A program made the translations under genes and the position numbers. From NCBI GenBank assembly GCA_009380095.1, contig WHSL01000005.1, forward strand, positions 1-63,066: 63,066 bases of DNA. The letters run 5' to 3'. Source of the DNA: Streptosporangiales bacterium. GTDB taxonomy: Bacteria > Actinomycetota > Actinomycetes > Streptosporangiales > Streptosporangiaceae. A model generated the notes under the pieces. It was not told the DNA's origin. It was given only the letters and a program-made list of their open reading frames with translations, and did no database searches. Positions 31,588-63,066 of this stretch are shown here, one piece after another (position 1 is the stretch's first letter; each line of letters opens with the position of its first letter).

Positions 31588-32501
31588 TGCTCGATATCCA
31601 CCGGCTCCGGCTGCTGTACGAGTTCGCGCACCGCGGCAGCATCGCCGCGACGGCCGCCGCCACCGGTTACAGCGCCTCCGCCGTCTCCCAGCAGCTCGCC
31701 ACGCTCGAGCGGGAGGCGGGCACGGCCCTGCTCGACCGCACCGCGCGCAGCGCCGAGCTGACCGACTCCGGACGGCGCCTCGCCGTGCACGCCGAACGCA
31801 TCCTCGACCTGCTGGAGGAGGCCGAGGCGGACATGTCCGCGGCGGCCGGGGCGCCGGCGGGCCGGGTGGTGGTCGGCGCCTTCCCCACCGCGGCGGTCGC
31901 GTTCGCCCCCGCGCTCGCCCGCAGCCTCCGCTCGCACCCGGGGCTGACGCTACGGCTGCGCCAGACGCGCCCGGGCGACGACGGGCTGCAGCAGATCCGG
32001 TCCGGCGAGGTGGACATCGCGCTCATCGACGACTGGAGCGGCAAGCTACCCGACCAGGGTGTGGGCACGCTGCGGTTCTTCCGGCTACTGCGGGATCCGC
32101 TGGTGCTGGTGGTGGGGCGCAGGCATCCGATGGCCGACCTGGACCGGCCCGTCGACCTCGGCGAGCTGCGCGAGGAGTCGTGGCTGGCCGCGCCCGCGGG
32201 TGAGCCGTCCCGGCAGGCCGTGGACCGGCTGCTGGCGGGGGCGGGCGGCGCGCACCCGGTGCCGTGGGAGTTCGAGGGGCTCAGCACGATCCTCGGCCTC
32301 GTCGCGCGGGGCATCGGCATCGCGGCCATCCCCGCACTGGCCCTGGCGGCCGGCGACCGCGGCGTCGTCGTGCGCGAGCTCCCCCGCCGTACCCTCGCCC
32401 GAGACGTCTACGCCGTGGTCCGCGCCTCCAGCGTCCGCCGCCCCTCGGTCTCCGTCTGCCTCACCGCCCTCCACCAAGCCTCCGAACACGTCCTCAAGTA
32501 A
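31587..32501 (+). CDS. LysR-family transcriptional regulator
   Basis: A 304-residue LysR regulator. Its N-terminal helix-turn-helix reads 'LRLLYEFAHRGSIAATAAATGYSASAVSQQLATLEREAG' and the LysR substrate-binding domain follows ('GRVVVGAFPTAAVAFAPALARSL', 'GLSTILGLVARGIGIAAIPALAL'). ATG 31587 is used, although no good ribosome site precedes it, consistent with a short leader. It is divergent from the aminotransferase gene, the classical arrangement for a regulator and its target. A dispersed-repeat segment begins right at its stop codon. Confidence 0.9.
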   Translation: MLDIHRLRLLYEFAHRGSIAATAAATGYSASAVSQQLATLEREAGTALLDRTARSAELTDSGRRLAVHAERILDLLEEAEADMSAAAGAPAGRVVVGAFPTAAVAFAPALARSLRSHPGLTLRLRQTRPGDDGLQQIRSGEVDIALIDDWSGKLPDQGVGTLRFFRLLRDPLVLVVGRRHPMADLDRPVDLGELREESWLAAPAGEPSRQAVDRLLAGAGGAHPVPWEFEGLSTILGLVARGIGIAAIPALALAAGDRGVVVRELPRRTLARDVYAVVRASSVRRPSVSVCLTALHQASEHVLK

Positions 32502-32520
32502 CCCAATTTGTTGATCTTGC
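32502..32520. repeat. Dispersed repeat, partial copy (segment S1)
   Basis: CCCAATTTGTTGATCTTGC matches the reverse complement of 52111-52129 at 17 of 19 positions and is related to the palindrome at 37112-37135. It fills the gap between the convergent LysR and def genes, touching the last base of the def stop codon. Confidence 0.65.
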
Positions 32521-32996
32521 TAGGGGTGGAAGTTGAGCAGGACCTCGCGGCGGAGGGGTTTGGCGAGGTGGTCGATGTAGAGGCGGCCGTCGAGGTGGTC
32601 GGTCTCGTGTTGGAGGCAGCGGGCGAGGTAGTCGCGGCCCCGTACGGTGATCGCGTCCCCGTTGGTATCCTGCCCGGTGACGGCGACCGCGGTGGGCCGC
32701 GCCGTGGGGTACTGGTGGCCCGGGATGGAGAGGCAGCCCTCCTCGTCGAGCTGCTCGGCCGGGTCGTCCACGGTGAGCACGGGGTTGGCCACCATCCCGG
32801 GCCGGCCGTCCTGGACGTCGTACACGAACAGCCGCAGGCCGACGCCGACCTGCGGGGCGGCGAGACCGACGCCGTCGGCCGCGTACATGGCCTGGAACAT
32901 CCGGTCCACCAGGGTGCGCAGCGCCGGGCCGAAGTCCCTGACAGGGTCCGCGGGGGTGCGCAGGACGGGGTCACCGAGGTAGCGAATGTCCATCAT
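32520..32996 (-). CDS. def: peptide deformylase
   Basis: A 158-residue peptide deformylase that removes the N-formyl group from nascent proteins. The three metal/active-site motifs are intact: 'GVGLAAPQVG', 'EGCLSIPG' with the metal Cys, and 'HETDHLDG' with the two His ligands and catalytic Glu. Start ATG 32996 or 32993, with AAGGA upstream. It converges with LysR. Many actinobacteria carry more than one def, so this may be a paralogue. Confidence 0.93.
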   Translation of the reverse strand: MMDIRYLGDPVLRTPADPVRDFGPALRTLVDRMFQAMYAADGVGLAAPQVGVGLRLFVYDVQDGRPGMVANPVLTVDDPAEQLDEEGCLSIPGHQYPTARPTAVAVTGQDTNGDAITVRGRDYLARCLQHETDHLDGRLYIDHLAKPLRREVLLNFHP

Positions 32997-36030: not shown

Positions 36031-37110
36031 ATGTCCGACCAGGCTTCCCCGCGTTTCCGGCCCACCCTCGAGGAGATCGTGGCCTACAAGCCGGGCCGCG
36101 TCACCACGTCGCCGGAGGGCCGCTCCTACAAGCTCTCCTCGAACGAGTCGCCGTACGGGCCGCTCCCCTCGGTGGTCGAGGTGATCGCCGAGGCCGCGCG
36201 CGGGGTGAACCGGTATCCGGACAACGGCGCGGTGGCGCTCACCGAGGCGATCGCCGAGCGGCAGCGGGTGCCGTACGACCACATCGCGCTGGGCTGCGGC
36301 TCCGTCGGCGTGACCCAGCAGCTGCTGGAGGCGATCGGCGAGCCGGGGGCCGAGGTGGTGTACGCCTGGCGCTCGTTCGAGGCGTACCCGATCCTCGCCG
36401 GCCTCGCGGCCACCACGTCCGTACGGGTGCCGCTGCGGGACGAGACGCACGACCTGGAGGCCATGGCCGGCGCGGTCACCGACCGCACCCGCGCGATCTT
36501 CGTGTGCAACCCCAACAACCCCACCGGGACGGTCGTGCACCGCGCCGAGCTGGAGCGCTTCCTGGACCGGGTGCCCGAGCACGTGCTGGTGGTGCTGGAC
36601 GAGGCCTACCACGAGTACGTCCGGGACGTACTCGTGCCGGACGGGATCGAGCTGTACCGCGACCGCCCCAACCTCGCCGTGCTGCGCACCTTCTCGAAGG
36701 CGTACGGGCTGGCCGGGCTGCGCGTCGGCTACATGGTGGCCCAGCCGGTGGTGGCGGAGGCCGTACGGAAGACGATGCTGCCGTTCACCGTCAACGCCGT
36801 GGCGCAGGCCGCGGCGATCGCCTCGCTGGGGGTGGAGGACGAGCTGTTCGCGCGGGTGGAGGCGACCGTCAAGGAGCGCACCCGGGTGCGCGAGGCGCTG
36901 CTCGCCCAGGGCTGGTCGGTGCCGCCCACCGAGGCCAACTTCGTCTGGCTGCCGCTCGGGCCCGACACGCTGGACTTCGCGGCCGCCTGCGAGCCGGCCG
37001 GGGTGGCGGTGCGTCCGTTCGCCGGCGACGGCGCGCGGGTCTCCATCGGCGACCCCGAGGCCAACGACGCCTTCCTCACCGTGGCGGCAAACTTCCCCAC
37101 CAAGCACTAA
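36031..37110 (+). CDS. hisC: histidinol-phosphate aminotransferase
   Basis: A 359-residue PLP enzyme of fold type I, HisC-like. Motifs: '[20 protein letters not shown]', '[18 protein letters not shown]', '[16 protein letters not shown]', '[13 protein letters not shown]', '[11 protein letters not shown]', PLP Lys223 in '[19 protein letters not shown]', and '[16 protein letters not shown]'. It converts imidazole-acetol phosphate to histidinol phosphate; some actinobacterial homologues act on aromatic amino acids (Pat) instead. The 'NNPTG' and '[11 protein letters not shown]' wording is equally good for both. It stands alone, away from other his genes, which slightly favours a second, aromatic-type copy. 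Confidence 0.85.
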
Positions 37111-37111
37111 C

Positions 37112-37135
37112 CCAAGATCAACTTGTTGATCTTGG
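37112..37135. repeat. Palindromic dispersed repeat after hisC
   Basis: CCAAGATCAA-CTTG-TTGATCTTGG forms a 10-bp perfect stem with a 4-nt loop, starting 2 bp after the hisC stop. Each arm matches the S1 segment found at 32502-32520 and 52111-52129. It can act as a terminator for hisC. Confidence 0.7.
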
Positions 37136-37171
37136 GGATTTCGGGAGGGGTTGGGGTTGCTTGGTAGGGGT

Positions 37172-51226: not shown

Positions 51227-52144
51227 GTGGCAGATGGCCCGACGCTACTGCTGATCACCAATCCCCTGGCCGGAGCGGGCGACGAGTCCGCCATCGCGGA
51301 GGCCGTCAAGGTGCTGCGCGCCCGCGCGGACGTACGGATCGCCGAGTGCAGCGACCCGCGTGAGCTGCGCGCCGCGCTGGGCCGGCGAGAGGGCCGCATG
51401 CCGGTTGTGTGCGGCGGGGACGGTTCGCTCAACCTGCTCGTGGGCGAGCTGCGCCGCCGTACCGAGCTGGCCGACACCGACATCGGCCTGATCCCGCTCG
51501 GCACCGGCAACGACCTGGCGCGTGGGGTCGGCGTGCCGCTGGCTCCGGAGCAGGCGGCCGCCACGGTGCTGGACGGGTACGGCAGGCCGCTGGATCTGCT
51601 CGTCGCCGACGAGGGCGGGGTGGCGGTGAACGCCGTGCACCTCGGGGCCGGCGCGGAGGCGGCGCGGCGGGCGCAGCCGTTCAAGTCGCGGCTCGGCCGG
51701 TTCGCCTTCCCCATGGGCTCGCTGCTGGCCGGGCTCGGCATGCGCGGGCTCCGGCTCAAGGTGATCGCCGACGGGCGCACGCTGGCCCGGAGGCGGGTGC
51801 TCATGGTGGGGCTGGCCAACGGGCCCACGATCGCGGGCGGCCGGGGCAAGCTCGCGCCGCGCGCGGTGCCGGACGACGGGCTCGTGGACGTGGTGGTGTC
51901 CGCCGCGATCGGCCCGGTGGCGCGGGTCGGGTACGCGCTGCACCTGCTGCGCGGGGTGCACGAGGCGCGCGCCGACGTACGGACGATACGTGCGCGCCGC
52001 GTCGTAATCATCGGCGAGCCGTTCGAGTACAACGCCGACGGCGATCTCGGCGGGCCGGTGACCCACCAGTGCTGGCGCGTCGAACCCCAAGCCTGGCGCC
52101 TCCGCGTCCCCCAAGATCAACAAGTTGGGGGAAGGAATTTGTAG
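51227..52144 (+). CDS. diacylglycerol/lipid kinase (DagK/YegS-like) with a repeat-derived end
   Basis: A 305-residue lipid kinase with the nucleotide motif 'VVCGGDGSLNLLVGEL' and 'IGLIPLGTGNDLARGVGVPL', divergent from purA. GTG 51227 follows TGAGGAGG. The domain should finish around 'GPVTHQCWRVEPQAWRLRVP'. The last ten residues, QDQQVGGRNL, and the TAG stop are encoded inside a dispersed palindromic repeat that begins at about 52108. The original stop was probably replaced when the element arrived. The enzyme phosphorylates diacylglycerol or related lipids at the membrane; the exact substrate is unknown. Confidence 0.88.
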   Translation: MADGPTLLLITNPLAGAGDESAIAEAVKVLRARADVRIAECSDPRELRAALGRREGRMPVVCGGDGSLNLLVGELRRRTELADTDIGLIPLGTGNDLARGVGVPLAPEQAAATVLDGYGRPLDLLVADEGGVAVNAVHLGAGAEAARRAQPFKSRLGRFAFPMGSLLAGLGMRGLRLKVIADGRTLARRRVLMVGLANGPTIAGGRGKLAPRAVPDDGLVDVVVSAAIGPVARVGYALHLLRGVHEARADVRTIRARRVVIIGEPFEYNADGDLGGPVTHQCWRVEPQAWRLRVPQDQQVGGRNL

Positions 52145-52247
52145 GCGAAGGCGCAGGTCGTGCCCGCAAAATTTTTCGACAAGTTGGGGGAAGGATTTTG
52201 CGACCCCCACCTGCGGTTCCCTCCACAAATTCCTTCCCCCAACTTGT
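52108..52247. repeat. Composite dispersed palindromic element (copy c)
   Basis: The element lies between convergent genes. It contains S1 (CCAAGATCAACAAGTTGGG, 52111-52129, itself flanked by CCCCCAA/TTGGGGG at 52108-52114 and 52125-52131). It also contains three copies of a 23-bp unit: 52120-52142, 52179-52201, and inverted at 52225-52247. The last two pair at 21 of 23 positions around a 23-nt loop containing ACCTGCGG. The copy at 62837-62903 has the same arm sequence, loop length and loop core. Confidence 0.8.
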
Positions 52248-52261
52248 GGAAGGGGGGTGGG

Positions 52262-53917
52262 TCAGACGGGGCGGGAGCTTTCGAGGGCGTCCCAGAAGCC
52301 GCGGCGGAGGGCGTGGCGGACCTCGTCGTGCAGCAGGTAGTCGATCGGCAGGGAGGAGCCCTGCAGCAGCCGGGCCTCCAGGTCGGACGGCATGCGTGGC
52401 TTTCGGGCCAGTACGGCCTCGAGCCAGAGCGCGGGCGCGTCGCGGGCCACCGAGTCGCCGAAGTCCCGCCCCTCCTGGTGGGCGGCCTTGACCGCGTCGG
52501 CCAGTGACGGTGACGCGGCGGGCTGCCCGCCGTACCCCGCGTGGACCGGGGGTTGTGGCGCCTGCTGGGGCTGTCGGCCGTACGCGGCGCCTTGATCGGC
52601 CGACGACTGCCCCATGATGTCGTGTCCCGCGTCGCCGTAGCCGCCGGGCTGGGGGTAGGCGGGCTGCTGGGCCGGCTGAGCGGGTGGCTGGGCGGCGGGC
52701 TGCTGATAGGCGTGCGAGTAGGGCGTCTGCTGCACCGGGGACGCGTACGGCCCCGTGGAGTACGACGGCGGGCCGGACTGCGACGCGAACTGACCGGTGT
52801 TACCGGAGTGCTCCACCGCGTACCCGCCCGTGCCGTTGACCGAGTGGCCCTGCGCGTGCTGGGCCGGTGCGGCGGCGGGCGGCGGTGCGCTCAGTGGTGG
52901 GGTGGGCGCGGCCTGAGGCATCGCGCCGCTGGTGGGGCCGGCCGGCGTCCCGCCGGGAGGCGTGCCGCCCTGCGGCGCGCCGTGCTGGAGACCCCCGCGC
53001 TGTGGGCCTGTGTGCTGGGGGCCGGTGTGCTGCGCCGCCCCGTGCTGGCCGGTGCCGTACTGACCCGTGCCGTAGGGGCCCGTGCCGTGCTGGCCGGCAC
53101 CGTGGCCGGCACCGTGGCCGGCACCGTGGCCGGCACCGTGCTGGCTCGCGGCGTGCTGGGGAGCGGACTCGGATGCCGCGACGGCGCCGAGCGCCTGGTG
53201 GGCGCCGGTGGTGTGGCCGTGCGCGACGGACGCCCCGGCGCCCGCCGGCGGCCCGGCGTAGATCGCGGGCGGCCCGCCGTGCGCCTGGATCGGCTGGTGC
53301 GAGGTGTGCCCGCCGGTGTCCTGCGCGCGGCCGTTGCTCATCGGTGAGGTGCCACCCGTCGGCGTGCCGGCGCTCTCCACACCGGTGATCAGGCTGACGT
53401 GCGGCCGCAGGTGCCCGGCCCCGATCTCGATGAGCTCGTCGCACTCCTGCCGCAGCGACCGCGCCACCGTCCAGTTGCCGTCGACCGCGACGTGCACGAC
53501 GGTGACCCGCACCCCGAGGTCCTGCGCCTCGGTGACGATGGGCGCCATGTCCTCGTCGCCGCTGATCAGCACGGCGTCGCAGATCGCGTGGCTGCGGGCG
53601 AGCCCGAGCAGGTCGCGGTGCACGTACGCGTCGACGCCCTCGCGCCGGCCCGGACGGCTACGGCCGAGCCGCAGCTTCAGGCCCGGGAGGTCGGCGAGCG
53701 CGTCGTGCTCCGGCGTGCGCCGCCCCTCGACCGTGGCCTCATACCAGTAGCAACGCAACAGCGGCAGGCCCGTCCGTTCGCGCGCCAGATCACCGACCAG
53801 CCGGAGTAGGCCGGCATGGTTCCAGGAGCAGGCCTCGCGATGACGGGTCCCATGCACGGCCATCGCGCCGTCTGCCAGCAAATAGCCGGCGTCGACGAAC
53901 AGCGCGCAGCGATCCAC
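52262..53917 (-). CDS. NYN (LabA/PIN-like) domain protein with a long repeat linker
   Basis: A 551-residue protein. Residues 1-165 are a NYN nuclease-like domain: 'MDRCALFVDAGYLLADG', 'GVDAYVHRDLLGLARSHAICDAVLISGDEDMAPIV' motifs (key Asp10, the DAY and SGDED acidic residues). Residues 170-490 form a low-complexity linker with (GAGH)4, GTGxYGTGQ and HTGPQ repeats and many Gln/Pro/Tyr. Residues 490-551 form a helical C-terminal domain ending 'DYLLHDEVRHALRRGFWDALES'. NYN proteins act on RNA; the linker resembles phase-separating regions of RNA-binding proteins. Start GTG at 53917. It converges on the repeat element. Confidence 0.8.
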   Translation of the reverse strand: MDRCALFVDAGYLLADGAMAVHGTRHREACSWNHAGLLRLVGDLARERTGLPLLRCYWYEATVEGRRTPEHDALADLPGLKLRLGRSRPGRREGVDAYVHRDLLGLARSHAICDAVLISGDEDMAPIVTEAQDLGVRVTVVHVAVDGNWTVARSLRQECDELIEIGAGHLRPHVSLITGVESAGTPTGGTSPMSNGRAQDTGGHTSHQPIQAHGGPPAIYAGPPAGAGASVAHGHTTGAHQALGAVAASESAPQHAASQHGAGHGAGHGAGHGAGQHGTGPYGTGQYGTGQHGAAQHTGPQHTGPQRGGLQHGAPQGGTPPGGTPAGPTSGAMPQAAPTPPLSAPPPAAAPAQHAQGHSVNGTGGYAVEHSGNTGQFASQSGPPSYSTGPYASPVQQTPYSHAYQQPAAQPPAQPAQQPAYPQPGGYGDAGHDIMGQSSADQGAAYGRQPQQAPQPPVHAGYGGQPAASPSLADAVKAAHQEGRDFGDSVARDAPALWLEAVLARKPRMPSDLEARLLQGSSLPIDYLLHDEVRHALRRGFWDALESSRPV

Positions 53918-62256: not shown

Positions 62257-62826
62257 GTGCCCGACCTGAACGACCTCGACGCGCTCGAGTTCGACGCCGC
62301 GCGGAGTGGTGACCACGCCGCCGCGGCCGAGCGCATGACGCGACTTGCCGAAGGGATCCTCCCGGAAGGCGAACCCTCGCGAGCCGAAGTGCTCGCACGG
62401 GCCGGTGAGCAGTGGCAGCTCGCCGGGGATCCCGCCCGTGCCGTACAGCTGTTCCGGCAGGCGATCGCCGACGGCGGCCGTACCGGAATCGACCCGCGCG
62501 CGTCGCTCGCCGACGCGCTCTTCGAGGTCGGTGAGGCCGCCGAGGCGCGGGATGTGCTGGCCGCGCTACGCGCGGAGCCCCGCCTGTCCCCGGCCACGTG
62601 CCTGACCGCCGCGGAGACCCTCATGGCCCAGGGGGATCTCCGCGCGACGCAGGACTGGGCGACCGAGGGCGTGCGCGCCGCACACGGCGGCGAGTGCGGC
62701 CCCGAAGGCGTGGAGCTGCTCGGCCAGTTGCTGCGCCTGCGCTTCCGCTGCCGGTCCGACCTCGGCCTACCCGAGGACGACTACGACCGCATGCTCGACG
62801 CCGGCACCTTCAAGGCCTCCCAGTAG
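62257..62826 (+). CDS. TPR-like hypothetical protein (189 aa)
   Basis: An acidic helical protein with TPR-like spacing: 'AEVLARAGEQWQLAGDPARAVQLFRQAIADGG', then 'ASLADALFEVGEAAEARDVLAALRAEP' and 'AAETLMAQGDLRATQDWATEGV'. GTG start at 62257. It lies 89 bp after the DUF3151 gene in the same direction and ends 10 bp before a dispersed palindromic element. No enzyme motif. Probably a protein-interaction scaffold. Confidence 0.75.
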   Translation: MPDLNDLDALEFDAARSGDHAAAAERMTRLAEGILPEGEPSRAEVLARAGEQWQLAGDPARAVQLFRQAIADGGRTGIDPRASLADALFEVGEAAEARDVLAALRAEPRLSPATCLTAAETLMAQGDLRATQDWATEGVRAAHGGECGPEGVELLGQLLRLRFRCRSDLGLPEDDYDRMLDAGTFKASQ

Positions 62827-62836
62827 CGCCCAAACC

Positions 62837-62903
62837 ACAAATTGGGGGAAGGATTTTGTTAAGGCGACCTGCGGGTTCTCCTACAAAATCCTTCCCCCAG
62901 ATT
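62837..62903. repeat. Dispersed palindromic element (copy d)
   Basis: A 23-bp unit at 62837-62859 (ACAAATTGGGGGAAGGATTT then TGT) pairs with the inverted 62883-62903. The inner 16 bp (62844-62859 with 62883-62898) are perfect. The 23-nt loop contains GACCTGCGGG, close to copy c. It follows the TPR-like gene and may end its transcript. Confidence 0.8.
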
Positions 62904-63066
62904 CGCGGATTCGGGGGATCCTGGGGGTTGACCTGGGGTTCCACGCTCACGCGGCCCGGAGTTCGGGGGTTTGGCCCGCAGGTGGCCCAGCGTCCGCGTT
63001 TTCGCTGGTCGCGGCGTTCCAGCCGTTTTCAATGAGGCTGTTGGATGTTGCTTCGAAGCCGGTCAC
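62904..63066. other. Window end without recognisable gene
   Basis: After the palindromic element 163 bp remain with G-rich runs (CGGGGGATCCTGGGGG) and no supported coding sequence on either strand. A TTGACC at 62929-62934 could be part of a promoter, but no -10 was recognised. Confidence 0.4.

What the first reader, a model, noticed from the sequence alone, without database searches (positions are those of the whole stretch)
52108..52247. Family of dispersed palindromic intergenic elements with a conserved loop
Four related sites occur: 32502-32520, 37112-37135, 52108-52247 and 62837-62903. Two segments recur: S1 (CCAAGATCAACAAGTTGGG) and a 23-bp arm around TTGGGGGAAGGATTTTG. Copies c and d have arms of the same sequence, loops of exactly 23 nt, and a shared loop core ACCTGCGG. 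Each copy touches the 3' end of a gene. This looks like a REP/MITE-type element or a mobile terminator, not chance.
Basis: partly seen in the sequence, partly recalled or inferred. Interest (0 to 1): 0.78.

Follow-up and report, generated by a model that had tools for sequence, protein, structure and literature searches.

The report
Hairpin repeats capping bacterial gene ends
About fifty full-length copies and some twenty short remnants of one roughly 85-base hairpin sequence sit at the ends of genes in this high-GC bacterium, closely resembling the palindromic repeats known from other bacteria and probably acting as portable two-way stop signals or end caps for messenger RNAs.

Summary
In detail: the four sites are real and belong to a genome-wide family. 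A covariance model finds about 50 distinct full copies (plus ~20 truncated ones) in the 6.09-Mb genome; reversed-pattern controls give 0 to 1. Consensus: CCAAGATCAACAAATTGGGGGAAGGATTTTG, a 23-25-nt loop with core GACCTGCGGG, and the inverse arm. The family was not detected in ~120 same-family genomes, ~120 of the order and ~390 of the class. Of 70 scorable copies, 69 have a stop codon within 36 nt of the element edge, mostly within a few nt. They lie between convergent or co-directional genes, with at most one (doubtful) divergent site. In seven genes the repeat itself supplies the last codons and the stop (tail ...QDQQIGGRNL*). No target-site duplications and no REP-type (Y1) transposase were found, so REPIN/RAYT membership is not supported. 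Best reading: a lineage-specific, probably once-mobile hairpin repeat kept at gene ends because it works as a bidirectional terminator or mRNA 3'-end cap. That function is inferred, not shown. Some relatives carry unrelated gene-end palindrome families, so this is a new member of a known kind. Two of those share the GTTGATC core in their arms, which is suggestive only.

The parts
32497..32520 (-). Remnant: one outer arm (AAGATCAACAAATTGG on the minus strand) filling the gap between two convergent stop codons (TAA 32499-32501; minus-strand TAG 32520-32522)
   Evidence: does not fold on its own
37112..37136 (.). Short form: perfect hairpin CCAAGATCAA-CTTG-TTGATCTTGG, 1 nt after the TAA (37108-37110) of an aminotransferase-like gene
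   Evidence: -13.1 kcal/mol, z -4.9
52109..52177 (-). Truncated copy; its left arm is read in frame as the last codons and TAG stop (52142-52144) of the upstream gene, tail QDQQVGGRNL*
   Evidence: the upstream protein ends ...AWRLRVP before the tail, and relatives end near there without the tail
52168..52258 (+). Full copy: inner arms about 52184-52200 and 52226-52242, loop core ACCTGCGG 52209-52216; minus-strand gene stop (TCA 52262-52264) 3 nt away
   Evidence: E 1.7e-22; -43.0 kcal/mol, z -4.0
62826..62917 (+). Full copy: inner arms 62843-62859 and 62883-62899, 23-nt loop, core ACCTGCGG 62867-62874; begins at the TAG (62824-62826) of the upstream gene
   Evidence: E 1.3e-20; -46.1 kcal/mol on +, -54.0 on -

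Best explanation
It is a lineage-specific family of miniature interspersed hairpin elements (about 85 bp; 31-nt inverted arms and a 23-25-nt loop with conserved core GACCTGCGGG; about 50 full copies plus about 20 truncated ones). Shown: copy number, confinement to this genome among those sampled, gene-end placement, strong predicted folding, and cases where the element supplies a gene's stop codon. Inferred: copies spread in the past by a copying process whose enzyme is not identified and which leaves no target-site duplication. Copies persist only where they abut stop codons because there they do no harm and, once transcribed from either side, form a long GC-rich hairpin that ends transcription and/or blocks 3' exonucleases for both convergent genes. 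Short forms are decay products, most of which keep a hairpin.
For: Genome-wide family with clean controls. Not detected in sampled relatives. Of 70 scorable copies 69 lie -36 to +25 nt from a stop codon and 58 lie -4 to +13 nt. Gaps holding an element: 33 convergent, 29 co-directional, 1 divergent; gaps without: 30, 159, 55; co-directional copies sit by the upstream gene's stop. Folding z-scores -4 to -11 in full copies; compensatory changes above column shuffles and slid pairings. Seven genes end in the element-encoded tail; homologues of the window's gene 51227-52144 in relatives lack tail and element. Many element-bearing convergent gaps are 84-95 nt, essentially the element alone. U-tract-free hairpin terminators, mostly within 20-50 nt of stop codons, are described in the literature, including for Streptomyces and M. 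tuberculosis (PMC8355165).
Against: No transcript or terminator data. No target-site duplication, no sharply defined ends, and outer arms often eroded on one side, so transposition is not demonstrated. Own-arm pairing of the outer arms is only slightly better than pairing with other copies' arms (p about 0.035). No mobilising enzyme was found, and only one enzyme family was searched. The gene-end position would also arise from purging of copies elsewhere, without any function.
Confidence: 0.6

Rival explanations
1. A REPIN-type selfish element mobilised by a Y1/HuH transposase (RAYT), retained at gene 3' ends only because other insertions are lost; any effect on transcription is incidental.
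For: Architecture (inverted arms, spacer, single-arm remnants) and downstream location match REPINs/REPs (PMC3116915, PMC3733652). Lineage-restricted copies.
Against: No Y1 transposase domain (PF01797) in the 97%-complete genome although the search rings in E. coli; no GTAG or CGTC terminal tag, and the junction tetranucleotide is variable.
Confidence: 0.17
2. A MITE derived from a conventional DDE insertion sequence, now immobile.
For: Terminal inverted repeats, small size, dispersed copies; another palindromic element nested in one copy shows a clean 9-bp duplication, so DDE-type MITE activity exists in this genome (sequence).
Against: No target-site duplications for this family; no parent IS sharing the arms was seen; the larger repeat next to three copies is a different unit.
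Confidence: 0.1
3. Not mobile: host terminators whose sequences are homogenised by recombination or gene conversion.
For: Tight fit between stop codons; ordinary hairpins follow other genes too.
Against: About 79% mean identity over about 50 unlinked sites, family seen only in this genome, and the element-supplied stop codons of seven genes fit arrival by insertion or replacement better.
Confidence: 0.08
4. A DNA-level site (nucleoid protein, gyrase or replication) rather than an RNA element; the conserved inner arms and loop core are the binding site.
For: The inner arms and the loop core are more conserved than base pairing alone requires; the loop is asymmetric.
Against: Strict gene 3'-end location and near-absence from divergent gaps point to transcripts; loop orientation relative to genes only weakly biased (6:16, p 0.05).
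Confidence: 0.05

Closest known systems
REPIN / REP sequences with RAYT transposases (Pseudomonas, E. coli; PMC3116915, PMC3733652)
   Same: Dispersed palindromic repeats; inverted pair of conserved arms around a spacer, hairpin-forming; single-arm remnants; mostly downstream of genes between convergent or co-directional ORFs
   Different: No RAYT/Y1 transposase found, no GTAG/CGTC terminal tag, the loop core itself is conserved, and edges lie at the stop codon
U-tract-free hairpin terminators (Streptomyces, M. tuberculosis; PMC8355165)
   Same: Stable hairpin just after the stop codon, no U-tract
   Different: Those are ordinarily unrelated in sequence; here one sequence family recurs at about 70 gene ends
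ERIC / NEMIS-Correia-type intergenic palindromes (from memory)
   Same: Roughly 100-bp palindromic interspersed elements that are co-transcribed
   Different: No sequence relation tested; different hosts
Gene-end palindrome families in relatives: G123/G124 TGATCACGTTAACGTGATCA; G021 CGTTGATCTCGG...CCGAGATCAACG
   Same: Dispersed hairpins at gene 3' ends in high-GC relatives; share the GTTGATC/GATCAAC heptamer in the arms
   Different: Inner arms and loops unrelated; the G021 arms run in the opposite order; the heptamer is not enriched at gene ends in most other genomes sampled

Membership tests
REPIN/REP (RAYT-associated) | Inverted conserved arms around a spacer forming a hairpin, many copies in one genome | tested here: met
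REPIN/REP (RAYT-associated) | REP-associated Y1 tyrosine transposase in the genome | tested here: not met
   PF01797: 0 matches in the own genome, positive in E. coli control; draft genome, 97% complete
REPIN/REP (RAYT-associated) | Terminal GTAG or CGTC tetranucleotide | tested here: not met
   The arm/loop junction reads GTAG in 10 of 47 copies, otherwise variable, and it is internal rather than terminal
MITE of a DDE insertion sequence | Target-site duplication flanking copies | tested here: not met
   Flank direct repeats equal shuffled pairs, 3.52 against 3.46 +/- 0.11
MITE of a DDE insertion sequence | Autonomous parent with the same terminal repeats | tested here: inconclusive
   No arm pair flanking a transposase was noticed among the copies; contigs are short and the genome fragmented
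Intrinsic terminator | Stable hairpin shortly after the stop codon | tested here: met
Intrinsic terminator | 3' U-tract (canonical type) | tested here: not met
   The arms end in G-rich sequence, in convergent gaps followed at once by the opposite gene's stop (by eye); U-tract-free types are described
Intrinsic terminator | Transcripts end at the element | not testable with these tools
   No transcriptome available
Known Rfam RNA family | Match at the gathering score | tested here: not met
   No match in the window; a permissive scan of one copy gives only sub-threshold matches, mostly to microRNA hairpin models

The most novel reading that the evidence does not exclude
Several high-GC actinobacterial lineages each carry their own, independently diverged family of mobile 3'-end hairpins built around a GTTGATC/GATCAAC arm module, spread by an unrecognised machinery that is not Y1-based and that places copies at stop codons or terminators, so that the element can take over a gene's stop codon and add a standard C-terminal peptide.
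Probability: 0.2. Interest if true: 0.65.

Novelty: new member of a known kind. Interest (0 to 1): 0.42.

Why it matters
REP-type repeats are best studied in proteobacteria. A family without a detectable RAYT in a high-GC bacterium, fitted to stop codons and sometimes supplying them, offers about 50 natural replicates for testing whether a repeat can serve as a portable bidirectional terminator, and a starting point for finding how such repeats spread without the usual transposase. Unrelated gene-end palindrome families in three of twelve other genomes sampled suggest the phenomenon recurs.

Tried and rejected
Parent-transposon idea: three copies (contigs C403, C404, C254) share at least 150 bp of downstream flank, reaching the contig end in two; a fourth place (C233) carries this flank without a full hairpin copy, next to an ORF that I read from memory as an EndoU-like toxin, so it is a different repeated unit and not the parent. 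Y1 transposase: none. Target-site duplications: none. An exact arm search in the named genome collection gave 39 scattered single hits in very diverse organisms, read as chance. The weak hit in G147 (E 0.008) looks like coding sequence, not a gene-end hairpin. Rfam: nothing. Class-wide enrichment of GTTGATC at gene ends: not general.

Full report
OBSERVATION. The four reported sites are present: a single-arm remnant (32497-32520), a short perfect hairpin (37112-37136), two abutting copies in opposite loop orientation (52109-52177 truncated; 52168-52258 full) and one full copy (62826-62917).

FAMILY. Searching the own genome gives 72 hits to GGGGGAAGGATTTTG (<=1 mismatch, reversed control 0) and 54 hits to AAGATCAACAAGTTGG (<=2, control 1). 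A covariance model built from 30 copies returns 106 strand-matches at E <= 1, which collapse to about 50 distinct full-length places because the palindrome matches on both strands. With short forms I tabulated 74 places. The consensus is CCAAGATCAACAAATTGGGGGAAGGATTTTG / loop (c-n-ggcgcGACCTGCGGGTTCTCCta) / inverse arm. Mean pairwise identity of the core is 79%.

DISTRIBUTION. The genus holds only this genome in the collection. The arm pattern or the model is absent, beyond single chance-like hits, in 120 genomes of the family, 120 of the order and about 390 of the class; the search used stricter filters that lose weak matches. The large named collection gave only scattered single hits, with the caveat that the window's own record may be left out there. 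The family is therefore lineage-specific as far as sampled.

POSITION. Gene calls were made with a simple codon-usage script, so individual starts and some small genes are uncertain. Of 74 places, 70 could be scored and 69 have a stop codon between -36 and +25 nt of the element edge, 58 between -4 and +13. Gaps holding an element are 33 convergent, 29 co-directional and 1 divergent (the last, in L208, may be a missed gene); gaps without are 30, 159 and 55. In co-directional gaps the element hugs the upstream stop, not the downstream start. In seven genes the reading frame runs into the element and ends at its TAG, giving the tail ...QDQQIGGRNL* or a close variant. In the window this is the gene 51227-52144; 22 homologues in relatives end near the same residue or a little beyond it, without this tail and without the element. 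The simplest reading is that arrival of the element displaced the stop codon there.

STRUCTURE. The four full copies folded give -43 to -64 kcal/mol, z -4 to -11, and the one copy folded on both strands folds on both. On 47 aligned copies the 31-pair stem is 79.7% paired; cells changed on both sides number 71 against 54.2 +/- 5.5 in shuffles (0 of 500 reach it), and no slid pairing reaches it. The inner stem hardly varies and so cannot show covariation; the outer arms vary, sometimes compensated (CCATGATC/GATCATGG in C144; GATCGAC/GTCGATC in C257). Own-arm pairing of the outer parts is only slightly better than pairing with other copies' arms (p about 0.035). Support for a conserved hairpin is therefore real but modest, and shared ancestry of copies inflates such counts.

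MOBILITY. Sequence identity over unlinked sites, lineage restriction and element-supplied stop codons argue for past spread. Against a classical transposon: no target-site duplications, no sharp ends, no parent. Against REPIN: no Y1 transposase, no terminal GTAG/CGTC tag. The flank shared by three copies belongs to another repeated unit. How it spread is unresolved.

FUNCTION. I think a bidirectional terminator and/or 3'-end cap is most likely: position, convergent bias, strong predicted hairpin, and published reports that hairpin terminators without a U-tract are common, including in Streptomyces and M. tuberculosis (PMC8355165). Published REPs show the same downstream bias and the same proposed roles (PMC3733652; PMC3116915). 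No step of this function is demonstrated here.

COMPARISON. Scanning pieces of twelve other genomes for repeated hairpin arms found analogous families with different sequences in three: G123 (76 hits of TGATCACGTTAACGTGATCA per strand with <=3 mismatches, 22 in its relative G124, reversed control 0; next to at least one gene 3' end in 16 of 17 inspected sites, though often some tens of nt away), G021 and G192. In G123 and G021, as here, the arms contain GTTGATC/GATCAAC, but G192 lacks it and the heptamer is not generally enriched at gene ends, so a common origin is only a possibility. Literature searches in the open-licence library found no description of such a family in actinobacteria, which is weak evidence of absence.

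VERDICT. A real repeat family that I found no published name for, ordinary in kind (REP/REPIN-like interspersed hairpins) but unusual in lacking the expected transposase and in fitting stop codons so tightly.

Noticed in passing
L169 (G000:C364:19166-19376): One copy is interrupted by another palindromic element of roughly 110-120 bp with terminal repeats CAGGGCGATTRCAAGGTCG and a 9-bp target-site duplication GGATTTTGT: apparently a separate, DDE-type MITE that has moved in this genome.
   Followed up: partly
window 62918-63066; L178, L194, L219: A repeated flank (GGTTGACCTGGGGTT...) follows the hairpin on three contigs and ends two of them; on C233 it lies near an ORF that looks, from memory, like an EndoU-type toxin with a small possible immunity gene.
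   Followed up: partly
L324-L333, L339-L348 (G123, G124): Repeat family of different sequence with palindrome TGATCACGTTAACGTGATCA, in G123 often next to inner arms GGACTTCACCTCGT...ACGAGGTGAAGTCC, near gene 3' ends.
   Followed up: partly
L380, L382, L383 (G021): Four 64-bp hairpins CGTTGATCTCGG...CCGAGATCAACG in 100 kb, in gene-end positions as far as inspected by eye, with inner arms that differ between copies yet stay largely complementary.
   Followed up: partly
L384-L388 (G192): Two further dispersed palindromes (GGTGACACCCCTTACT... and CGCTTCACTCG...) in another family of the class.
   Followed up: no
seven genes, e.g. window 51227-52144, L173:419-2536, L178:1865-2536: Different proteins share an element-encoded C-terminal tail QDQQ(I/V)GGR(N/I)L, or part of it.
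   Followed up: partly
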